Part shown: positions 1,060 through 22,779 of the stretch, piece by piece
Position numbering within the stretch: the stretch's first letter is position 1
How the letters are laid out: the number at the start of each line of letters is the position of its first letter
Source of the DNA: Lachnospiraceae bacterium
Lineage (GTDB): Bacteria; Bacillota_A; Clostridia; Lachnospirales; Lachnospiraceae
DNA length: 36,851 nucleotides
Assembly (NCBI GenBank): GCA_024689605.1
Contig: JAILDD010000058.1
Coordinates: 1 to 36,851, forward strand
Direction of reading: 5' to 3'
Notes under the pieces: generated by a model
Told to the model about the DNA's origin: nothing
What the model saw: only the letters and a program-made list of their open reading frames with translations
The model's database searches: none
Program-made: the position numbers and the translations under genes

Positions 1060-1647
1060 CTATAAAATACCATAATGTTCCAGTAAAATCTTTATGCTGA
1101 TCAGAATCAGAACAATTCCTCCGGCAATTTCCGCACCGGATTTATATTTTGCTCCAAATACTGCCCCTATACGGACACCCGATGCCGAAAAAAGGAAAGT
1201 AGTCAGCATGATAAGAATACAGGCGGCTGCCGTATTTATAAATCCCGATGCATTCATAATATTTACAGGAACAGCTACAAATGTAATACCGACAGCCAGT
1301 GCATCTATTGAAGTAGCAACAGCCATCATGAACATGGTCTTTATGCCAAAGCCGGCTTCCGTCTCCTCCTCTTCTTTTGAGAGTACCTCCTTAAGCATAT
1401 TTATACCGATGACCGCCAGAAGGAAAAATGCCAGCCAGGGTGCGATCCTGTTTATAATAAACTCAAAACGGCTGCCCACCAGGAATCCTATGAACGGCAT
1501 AAGTCCCTGGAAACCGCCAAACCAGACGCCGCAAATAGCACATTCCTTCATCGTGATCTTTTTTGTCGAAAGTCCTTTGCAGATTGATACCGCAAAAGCA
1601 TCCATGGAAAGGCCTACTGCAAGCATGATAAGTTCTATTAAGCCCAT
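1060..1647 (-). CDS. mntP: Manganese efflux pump MntP (DUF204/YtaF type)
   Basis: This is a 195-residue, six-helix membrane protein exporting Mn2+ across the cytoplasmic membrane. It has the two half-repeats of the MntP family, with the signatures LSMDAFAVSICKGL near the N-terminus and TSIDALAVGITF in the second half; the paired Asp residues are the family's metal-site acids. The start at 1647 is chosen because it begins the canonical MGLIEL helix and has an AAAAGGAG ribosome site seven bases upstream. A longer in-frame start at 1848 would read through the structured leader and adds 67 residues with no family match. The length fits the family (about 185-195). A yybP-ykoY element and terminator lie upstream on the same strand, as expected for a Mn2+-induced exporter. 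Confidence 0.95.
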   Translation of the reverse strand: MGLIELIMLAVGLSMDAFAVSICKGLSTKKITMKECAICGVWFGGFQGLMPFIGFLVGSRFEFIINRIAPWLAFFLLAVIGINMLKEVLSKEEEETEAGFGIKTMFMMAVATSIDALAVGITFVAVPVNIMNASGFINTAAACILIMLTTFLFSASGVRIGAVFGAKYKSGAEIAGGIVLILISIKILLEHYGIL

Positions 1648-1667
1648 TTTTTCTCCTTTTATCGCAA

Positions 1668-1918
1668 CAGCTCGCAGCTTTGCTGCTCGATGCCGCGTTG
1701 GTCTTCGAATGCATACGTCTTCAAGCGCCTTCATGCTCGCCGGCAGCTCGCAGCAAAGCTGCGAGCTGCCGCGTTGACGGTCAAATGTCTGACCGTGTAA
1801 ACACGGCAGACATTTCGAACATAGCTTTTCTTCCCTCGGTCCATGCAAGCATGGCCCGTCGTCCGAAAAGCTATGTTCAAGCGGCTAACCGTGCAAGCAC
1901 GTTCATCCGCTTGACCGT
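1668..1918 (-). repeat. Array of nested inverted repeats in the mntP leader
   Basis: About 250 nt between the riboswitch terminator and the mntP ribosome site is almost entirely made of perfect inverted repeats (+ coordinates). CAGCTCGCAGCTTTGCTGC at 1668-1686 is exactly complementary to 1750-1768. 1741-1754 pairs with 1758-1771 around AAA. 1783-1791 pairs with 1807-1815, and inside it 1793-1797 with 1802-1806. A 14/14 arm at 1817-1830 pairs with 1865-1878, with an inner hairpin at 1841-1854. 1879-1884 pairs with 1907-1912, with an inner hairpin at 1890-1901. ACGGTCAA at 1777-1784 also pairs with 1911-1918. TGCCGCGTTG occurs twice (1691-1700, 1767-1776). Three modules share the design of an outer arm plus a small apical hairpin with a CAAG or TAAA loop. 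I do not recognise it as a named element. Confidence 0.8.
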
Positions 1919-1930
1919 TTTATCGCGCAC

Positions 1931-1951
1931 AAAAAAACCGCTCATAAGCGG
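1931..1951 (-). terminator. Intrinsic terminator, riboswitch expression platform
   Basis: On the minus strand the stem CCGCT-TATG-AGCGG (1938-1951) is followed by seven T (1931-1937). It lies about 50 nt after the aptamer and before mntP, so it is the likely regulated terminator. GGCGGC at 1981-1986 (minus reading) could pair with GCCGCU at the base of the stem and act as an antiterminator. Confidence 0.8.
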
Positions 1952-1999
1952 CGTACATCGATAATATTTCCCCACGCACAGCCGCCTACCGGTTGCACA

Positions 2000-2080
2000 T
2001 GAGTCTCGCATTTTAAAGTAAGCCAGGTTCTTATAACCATGATGTTGACTTACTGCGCAGGCGCTTGCTACTCCCTCACT
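2000..2080 (-). ncRNA. yybP-ykoY manganese riboswitch aptamer
   Basis: Read on the minus strand, the element opens with UGAGGGAGUAGC (2078-2067) and closes with GCGAGACUCA (2009-2000), the two conserved internal-loop strands of the yybP-ykoY class; UGAG and CUCA form the base of P1. Between them is a hairpin arm AGUAAG...CUUACU (2054-2049 with 2022-2017) carrying an inner GGUU...AACC. Riboswitches of this class bind Mn2+ and typically control Mn exporters, which matches mntP downstream. The terminator at 1931-1951 is the likely output, so Mn2+ binding is expected to allow read-through. Confidence 0.88.
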
Positions 2081-2089
2081 GCATTTTCA

Positions 2090-2119
2090 ATGCTATCATT
2101 GCGCCGTCCAATTAGTCAA
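2090..2119 (-). promoter_or_regulatory. Candidate promoter of the riboswitch-mntP transcript
   Basis: The minus strand has TTGACT (2119-2114), an 18-nt spacer and TAGCAT (2095-2090). The expected start, near 2083, is a few bases before the aptamer P1, which fits a riboswitch promoter. The -10 is only 4/6. Confidence 0.5.
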
Positions 2120-2168
2120 CTTGGACGTTCGGTAGGCGCTTCTAACTAGTAAAACCGGAAGAACCATA

Positions 2169-22745: not shown

Positions 22746-22779
22746 AAAAAACACCATGCAGAATTGCATGGTGTTTTAA
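22746..22779. terminator. Bidirectional terminator after the activase gene
   Basis: AAAACACCATGCA (22748-22760) pairs perfectly with TGCATGGTGTTTT (22765-22777) around GAAT. It serves the convergent 127-residue gene as well. Confidence 0.92.

What the first reader, a model, noticed from the sequence alone, without database searches (positions are those of the whole stretch)
1648..1930. Nested hairpin array inserted between a Mn riboswitch terminator and the mntP start
Seen directly: about 250 nt built of perfect inverted repeats (arms of 19, 14, 14, 9, 8 and 6 bp), three of them with the same design of an outer arm capped by a small CNTG-CAAG-CANG-type hairpin, plus a 10-nt direct repeat (TGCCGCGTTG at 1691 and 1767). 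Several arms have alternative partners (1777-1784 with 1790-1796 or 1911-1918; 1750-1768 with 1668-1686 or itself), so the region can switch folds. It lies wholly in the mRNA leader, downstream of the intrinsic terminator, so it is transcribed only when the riboswitch lets polymerase through. It may be a mobile palindromic repeat family that landed here, or a second post-transcriptional control layer.
Basis: partly seen in the sequence, partly recalled or inferred. Interest (0 to 1): 0.74.

Follow-up and report, generated by a model that had tools for sequence, protein, structure and literature searches.

The report
Mobile cloverleaf repeat behind transcription terminators
The hairpin array between the manganese-switch terminator and the mntP gene is one copy of a family of small mobile DNA repeats of Lachnospiraceae gut bacteria that land just behind transcription terminators and fold into a cloverleaf, so it is best read as a structured genomic hitch-hiker in a regulated leader rather than as a dedicated second switch.

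Summary
In detail: 1930-1648 (mRNA = minus strand) is a dense hairpin array (fold z -8.8) that starts right after the T tract of the Mn-riboswitch terminator and ends at the mntP Shine-Dalgarno. It is one copy of a dispersed repeat family. Eight full copies at seven gene loci of the genus share one architecture: GUGCGAUAAG, closing stem, three long arms, CAACGC. Arms change sequence but keep pairing (39 of 60 pairs doubly changed; shuffled mean 20.4). In another Lachnospiraceae genus a related unit is recently mobile: 11 stretches identical over at least 117 nt in one genome, and empty orthologous sites; copies usually start 4-8 nt after an intrinsic-terminator stem (34 of 49 by a strict rule; background 0.8%). 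At mntP the block is seen in none of 21 relatives' loci, including the two closest, whose riboswitch and terminator are intact. So "mobile palindromic repeat that landed here" is supported; "second control layer" is neither needed nor excluded. The mobilising enzyme is unknown: no group II maturase and no Y1 transposase domain was found in nine genomes searched.

The parts
1931..1952 (-). intrinsic terminator (stem-loop 1952-1937, T tract to 1931) of the Mn-riboswitch-like leader; the element starts at the next base
   Evidence: terminator scan; sequence
1955..2150 (-). Mn-riboswitch-like leader (approximate limits)
   Evidence: alike in the leaders L148, L149, L151, L153, L160, L161, L163 by the strings GGGAGTAG and GAGACT; RF00080 on L161 and L153 below gathering score; not scored in the window
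1921..1930 (-). 5' core of the element, GTGCGCGATA (family consensus GTGCGATAAG)
1770..1927 (-). P1, closing pairs 1927-1924 with 1773-1770
   Evidence: alignment A2 and pair counts
1777..1918 (-). P2, 1918-1912 with 1783-1777 (ACGGTCA/TGACCGT)
1880..1911 (-). arm 1, cap CGTG-CTTG-CACG
1816..1879 (-). arm 2, 14-bp outer stem, cap CATG-CTTG-CATG
1784..1814 (-). arm 3, cap CGTG-TTTA-CACG
1767..1776 (-). first 3' core CAACGCGGCA
1741..1771 (-). 3' hairpin module (14-bp perfect stem, loop TTT)
1664..1693 (-). second 3' hairpin module (CATCGAGCAGC-AAA-GCTGCGAGCTG), resembling the 3' module of L100 and L145 by eye
1657..1665 (-). GCGATAAAA, a second 5'-core-like stretch; perhaps the start of a truncated tandem copy, as seen in other genomes, or a 9-bp duplication
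   Evidence: tandem copies; inference
1653..1657 (-). Shine-Dalgarno AGGAG of mntP
1063..1647 (-). mntP coding sequence

Best explanation
The block is one copy of a non-coding, mobile, modular repeat family of Lachnospiraceae. A copy inserts in one orientation at the end of an intrinsic terminator, about where transcription stops, giving [terminator stem]-[T tract]-GUGCGAUAAG... In the window's genus the unit folds as a four-way junction (P1, P2, three arms with CUUG/UUUA-type caps) followed by one or more 3' hairpin modules. Shown: dispersal, terminator adjacency, fixed orientation, structure kept by covariation, absence from the orthologous mntP leaders held; recent mobility and empty sites, the latter two in another genus. 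Inferred: that the window copy moved in the same way; that the fold, as single-stranded DNA or as RNA, is the substrate of mobility, which would explain why pairing outlives arm sequence; that at mntP the copy is a passenger, transcribed only when the riboswitch lets polymerase through, with at most a modest effect on mRNA stability or initiation.
For: Copies at other loci of relatives; in 13 of 14 window-genus copies a strict terminator precedes (some of these copies were found with a T-containing pattern). Eight full copies with one architecture, fold z -7.9 to -9.9; covariation 39 doubly changed pairs of 60 against 20.4 shuffled, 0 of 500, and at most 12 in slid versions. The model finds diverged members in other genomes. 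G168: 53 matching stretches, 11 identical over 117 nt or more, the query included. Terminator before 34 of 49 distinct copies, strict; background 0.8% of positions, 5.7% of T-rich positions; 46 of 49 permissive, background 10%; start 4-8 nt after the stem in 29 of 35 scorable. Empty sites: L255, L256, L235 against L253; L233, L234 against L231. Block absent from mntP leaders.
Against: No mobilising enzyme identified: GIIM 0 of 9, Y1_Tnp 0 of 9, RVT_1 absent from G168, G388, G003 and G002; other transposase families were not searched. No autonomous copy seen. No empty-site or near-identity evidence of mobility in the window's own genus apart from mntP itself. Orthologous sites stay occupied (pheS in three species, thiamine gene in three, trpD and ABC-F gene in two each), which a pure passenger need not do. 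The short G168-type element is not hit by the cloverleaf model (L131, L136, L140, L146), so that link rests on the shared core, the arm design and weak hits to long forms (L139, L201, L118; L202 and L207 not hit).
Confidence: 0.8

Rival explanations
1. The cloverleaf is a functional RNA module added behind conditional terminators: a second layer that tunes stability, read-through or initiation of riboswitch- and T-box-controlled mRNAs. At mntP, 1731-1740 could pair with coding 1619-1628 and hide the Shine-Dalgarno.
For: Strong covariation. In the window's genus 5 of 8 gene loci follow a Mn, T-box or TPP leader (Mn by orthology), against 1 of 20 in G168/G073/G388; one-sided Fisher 0.003, with unequal ways of finding the copies. 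Retention at orthologous loci. With coding bases included the Shine-Dalgarno is mostly paired (unpaired probability 0.12-0.20).
Against: No mntP relative held has it. With the fold ended at 1640 the Shine-Dalgarno is free. The pheS copy of G003 (L061) is rearranged and folds poorly (z -3.1). Arm number falls to one or none at the thiamine gene. In the other genus 13 of 23 copies have an opposite-strand nearest downstream ORF (rough ORF reading).
Confidence: 0.13
2. It is a miniature derivative of a group IIC intron, moved as RNA by a reverse transcriptase acting in trans.
For: Insertion right behind intrinsic terminators as for group IIC introns (PMC8919778, passages); ends GTGCG...AT in the G168 type, like the 5' GUGYG and 3' AY of group II introns (recalled).
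Against: No GIIM domain in 9 of 9 genomes; no RVT_1 hit in G168, which has the most copies. No Rfam group II match in the block or in the eight loci. Truncated copies lack the 3' end, not the 5' end, opposite to what incomplete target-primed reverse transcription of the sense RNA would leave.
Confidence: 0.05
3. Chance inverted repeats, or a stack of terminators or attenuators evolved in place.
For: Terminators and leaders are rich in hairpins.
Against: Fold z -8.84; copies at other loci; covariation; the scan finds one terminator-like site in 1600-2300, the one before the block.
Confidence: 0.02

Closest known systems
BOX elements of Streptococcus pneumoniae (PMC3049150; abstract and passages read)
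   Same: Dispersed, non-autonomous, modular repeat with conserved ends and a variable number of internal units; strongly folded when transcribed; one BOX lies between two T-box motifs before the trp operon, and both motifs appear to work still.
   Different: No BOX sequence was compared here. BOX is reported to have terminal inverted repeats and target duplications; here neither is clear. No terminator targeting was mentioned for BOX in the passages read. Here whole arms change sequence while staying paired.
Group IIC introns (PMC8919778 and PMC10190682; passages read)
   Same: Insert immediately behind rho-independent terminators, with recognition of a DNA stem-loop.
   Different: The element is about 120-270 nt, without coding sequence, without an Rfam group II match, and in genomes without a GIIM hit.
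Bacterial MITEs and palindromic repeats (RUP, SPRITE, REP; review PMC10969869, passages read)
   Same: Short dispersed non-coding repeats with strong folds that can lie in transcripts.
   Different: No clear terminal inverted repeats or target duplication; the target is a terminator rather than a base motif.

Membership tests
BOX element | sequence homology to boxA, boxB, boxC | not tested
   no BOX sequence was fetched; the resemblance is of design only
BOX element | conserved ends with a variable number of internal units | tested here: met
   arms number none to three between the 5' and 3' cores; a likeness of design, not homology
Group IIC intron | insertion directly behind an intrinsic terminator | tested here: met
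   34 of 49 strict, 46 of 49 permissive; start 4-8 nt after the stem in 29 of 35
Group IIC intron | intron RNA domains, domain V above all | tested here: not met
   no Rfam match to a group II family over the block up to E 5 nor in eight loci with copies up to E 0.1
Group IIC intron | maturase/reverse transcriptase in the host | tested here: not met
   PF08388 0 of 9 genomes; PF00078 in 5 of 9, not in G168, G388, G003, G002; completeness of these genomes not given
IS200/IS605-type non-autonomous element | Y1 transposase in the host | tested here: not met
   PF01797 0 of 9 genomes, rings in 5 of 14 control genomes
MITE | short, non-coding, dispersed in near-identical copies | tested here: met
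   (G168-type element); for the window's subfamily dispersal only
MITE | terminal inverted repeats and target duplication | tested here: inconclusive
   ends GTGCGATAAG and CTACTCGAT share little by eye; the T tract hides any short duplication
Riboswitch or other cis-regulatory RNA of mntP | conserved before the same gene in relatives | tested here: not met
   0 of 21 mntP loci of the genus
Structured RNA | covariation beyond shuffled and slid controls | tested here: met
   the structure was derived from the same alignment, which favours it

The most novel reading that the evidence does not exclude
A new class of minimal mobile element that recognises intrinsic terminators by structure and by the point where transcription ends rather than by sequence, and whose fold, not sequence, is the substrate of transposition, so that whole arms can be swapped or regenerated while pairing is kept; moved as single-stranded DNA or as RNA by an enzyme not yet known. 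It would be a group-IIC-like targeting strategy reached without an intron.
Probability: 0.3. Interest if true: 0.85.

Novelty: new variant of a known kind. Interest (0 to 1): 0.62.

Why it matters
Small interspersed repeats are common, but one that tails intrinsic terminators in a fixed orientation and keeps a cloverleaf by covariation while its arms change was not found in Rfam or in eight searches of an open-access library. It makes two questions testable: what besides group IIC introns uses a terminator as an insertion target, and whether riboswitch and T-box leaders keep working when a large structured passenger sits between terminator and gene.

Tried and rejected
Chance hairpins or stacked terminators: rejected. 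A known Rfam RNA over the block: only two plant/animal microRNA families far below their gathering scores. Group II intron and Y1 origin: domain searches empty; the RVT_1 proteins of five genomes were not studied. Phages and plasmids: no blastn match of the block or of the G168 element; nine viral contigs with the 16-base core show no element by eye and no model hit. Outside Lachnospiraceae: of 391 genomes of the class, G003 and three others have TTTTTGTGCGATAAG; the three show no element by eye; only this one exact core was tried there. Target duplication: GCGATAAAA at both ends of the window block was first taken for one; tandem copies elsewhere begin with the same core, so a truncated tandem copy is my preferred reading, unproven. 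Another BLAST of the block over all 35 genomes of the genus matched only G002 and G003 at E <= 0.001, because arm sequence turns over; the exact 14-base core occurs in 5 of 35.

What was left out of counts. Alignment A2 holds eight copies picked for the full architecture; rearranged L061, L083 (same sequence as L059), and the short or armless L050, L063, L065, L090 were left out; the counted structure comes from the same alignment. Alignment A1 (G168 type) gives weaker covariation: 5 of 40 pairs doubly changed. The family-wide core search gave 77 hits (my sum) in 30 of 397 genomes and 30 loci; of those 30 I judged by eye 7 full elements, 12 cores behind a terminator-like site without recognisable arms, and 11 chance hits. 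20 of the other 47 hits were fetched and 27 not seen there. Of 53 stretches in G168 not all were opened, and 40 of 44 candidates were scored. Five gene starts were used to look for empty sites; three (purC, pheS, aspartate-racemase-like) gave useful orthologues; at purC the relatives lack the element but show no clear matching terminator. Gene names such as pckA, galE, trpD, ABC-F, thiamine-binding protein, recG are my reading of the translations (recalled), from no family search.

Full report
What is there. mntP is on the minus strand with its start at 1647. On that strand a Mn-riboswitch-like leader is followed by an intrinsic terminator (stem-loop 1952-1937, T's to 1931), then the block (1930 to 1657), then AGGAG and the start codon. 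The block folds at -142.3 kcal/mol, z -8.84. RF00080 does not score the window leader but scores two of five orthologous or related leaders, L161 (E 8.4e-6) and L153 (E 0.051), below its gathering score; the riboswitch name therefore rests on orthology.

Not part of the mntP leader by descent. The closest mntP loci (L001 = L148, protein 90% identical; L003 = L149, Lachnospiraceae bacterium AB2028, 86%) have riboswitch, terminator, Shine-Dalgarno and start in direct succession. In the genus 21 of 35 genomes have mntP at E <= 1e-30. None of the 21 loci is hit by the structural model, and none has GTGYGATAA or CAACGC(A/G) in the upstream stretch held: 500 nt in 19, 369 and 68 nt in two.

Copies elsewhere in the genus. 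BLAST of the block matched two of three relatives, and the motif TTTGTGCGATAAG with up to one mismatch brought in more copies besides chance hits. By eye, copies lie behind the terminators of leaders of pheS (G001, G002, G003), trpD (G001, G002), an ABC transporter (G003), a thiamine-related gene (G002, G003, G008), an ABC-F gene (G002, G008), and behind terminators after pckA and near galE in G003. Rfam scores a T-box before L059, L061, L058, L065 and L072 (the last three below gathering score) and a TPP riboswitch before L063, L090 and L085 (the last below). No Rfam match stands before the copies in L048, L094, L052 and L054 up to E 0.01. A strict terminator test is met in 13 of 14 of these copies, the window's included; L049 fails it but has an imperfect stem with T's.

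Architecture. Eight full copies (window, L048, L049, L052, L054, L059, L072, L094; seven gene loci) are 147-161 nt from GTG to CGC(A/G) and fold with z from -7.9 to -9.9; seven of the eight single-sequence folds show P1, P2 and three arms, while L094 alone folds differently in its first and third arm. L061 is rearranged (201 nt, z -3.1). On a sequence-only MAFFT alignment (A2) with the RNAalifold structure, 91.9% of 468 cells pair (shuffled mean 74.4%), 39 of 60 pairs have a double change (20.4) and 87 cells do (28.2), each reached by 0 of 500 shuffles; slid structures give at most 12 such pairs and 16 such cells. Shuffles do not keep relatedness and the structure comes from this alignment, so the controls flatter it somewhat. 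In 14 copies, one a duplicate, 17 caps of the form CNTG-(CTTG, TTTA or GTTA)-CANG are on the mRNA strand and none on the other. The number of arms falls to one (L050) or none (L063, L090) at the thiamine gene.

The model. R1, built from A2, finds in 496,653 bases of the window and 38 relatives' loci only the window block, a training member, on both strands. Over 57 loci it finds its members and their duplicates, and beyond them L145 (E 3.5e-14; the locus has a run of N), L107 (3.3e-13), L061 (8.6e-11), L120 (4.9e-7), L100 (7e-7), L139 and L201 (4.3e-5), L050/L085 (6.3e-5), L143 (6.9e-5), L142 (1.8e-4), L118 (3.3e-4), and doubtful L117 (0.09) and L114 (0.96). It does not find the short G168-type copies L131, L136, L140, L146, L123, nor the long L202 and L207.

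A wider family and its mobility. TTTTTGTGYGATAAG has 77 hits (my sum) in 30 of 397 Lachnospiraceae genomes, against 2 for the reversed pattern; G073 has 20. Some are chance. In G168, G073 and G388 there is a homogeneous unit of about 123 nt, GTGCGATAAGC...CTACTCGAT, with weaker covariation (5 of 40 pairs doubly changed, 10 sequences). G168 has 53 matching stretches, 11 of them 100% identical over 117 nt or more, the query included. Eleven pairs of stretches are parted by about 90 nt: a long form with a further arm, of which three stem sequences are seen, each still paired, with tip CTTG in two and TTTA in one. Tandem copies (L210, L213) and copies cut at the 3' end (L199, L203, L204, L216) occur. 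Empty orthologous sites: an aspartate-racemase-like gene (filled L253; empty L255, L256, L235; L262 has another terminator, no element) and pheS (filled L231; empty L233, L234; a relic in L254).

Terminator targeting. Of 49 distinct copies in G168, G073 and G388, 46 follow a hairpin and T tail by a permissive rule (background 754 of 7486 positions; this rule also counts the hairpin of a preceding tandem copy) and 34 by a strict perfect-stem rule (background 190 of 24,400 positions; 250 of 4,377 T-rich positions; three of the 15 misses are second copies of tandems). Of 46 non-tandem copies 35 had a scorable stem and 29 of these start 4-8 nt after it. Of 20 such loci searched, one (L178, T-box) has a riboregulator at the copy. 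In a rough ORF reading of 23 loci the nearest upstream ORF runs with the element in 18, and the nearest downstream ORF runs against it in 13. The target is the terminator, not the leader as such.

How it most likely works. A copy enters where an intrinsic terminator releases its RNA, in the direction of transcription, so its sequence is made only on read-through and the insertion does little harm. That pairing survives the loss of arm sequence suggests that the fold is needed, by the mobility machinery or as RNA; the data do not say which. The enzyme is unknown: no GIIM and no Y1_Tnp hit in nine genomes, no RVT_1 hit in four of them, G168 included. Other transposases were not searched, and completeness of these genomes is not stated.

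At mntP. The block puts about 270 nt between terminator and gene. Folded to 1640, the Shine-Dalgarno is free; with more coding sequence it is mostly paired, apparently because 1731-1740 can pair with 1619-1628, and the long-range 1668-1686/1750-1768 pairing is then not in the best fold. One species and one predicted fold cannot decide; a role at mntP is possible but unsupported. In the window's genus 5 of 8 gene loci follow a Mn, T-box or TPP leader against 1 of 20 in the other genomes (one-sided Fisher 0.003), but the two sets were found in different ways.

Known relatives. By design the nearest described thing is BOX of pneumococcus, one of which lies between two T-boxes before trp (PMC3049150, abstract and passages); by target, group IIC introns (PMC8919778, passages; PMC10190682, passages). 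Membership in neither is claimed. Eight searches of the open-access library gave no description of this family; subscription papers are not held.

Noticed in passing
L088 1301-1520: A leader resembling the Mn riboswitch by eye (GGGAGTAATC...GTCATCA...GTGAGACTTGAG) before an ABC transporter gene in G004; its terminator is followed by GTGCGATAAG and then directly by the Shine-Dalgarno, without arms. No Rfam match in this locus up to E 0.01.
   Followed up: partly
L091 around 1501: A tRNA-like gene (leucine by eye) whose terminator is followed by GTGCGATAAG without a recognisable element.
   Followed up: no
L098, L099, L104, L106, L110, L113, L114, L115, L121, L122, L124, L125: The core GTGYGATAAG behind terminator-like sites without arms, 12 of 30 loci by eye: relics, minimal forms, or a post-terminator motif in its own right.
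   Followed up: partly
L059 1358-1510 and L083 904-1056: The pheS copies of G001 and G002, two different species by MntP identity, are the same sequence over the 213 nt printed: recent exchange, or a mis-binned contig.
   Followed up: no
window 1060-1848: The mntP frame stays open upstream through part of the block to a TTG at 1848 (262 aa); the copy in L048 is likewise open into the ABC-F frame. Probably chance, but it recalls the ORFs reported in BOX elements (PMC3049150, abstract).
   Followed up: no
window 22748-22777: A 13-bp perfect inverted repeat with a 4-nt loop (AAAACACCATGCA/TGCATGGTGTTTT), unrelated to the block.
   Followed up: no
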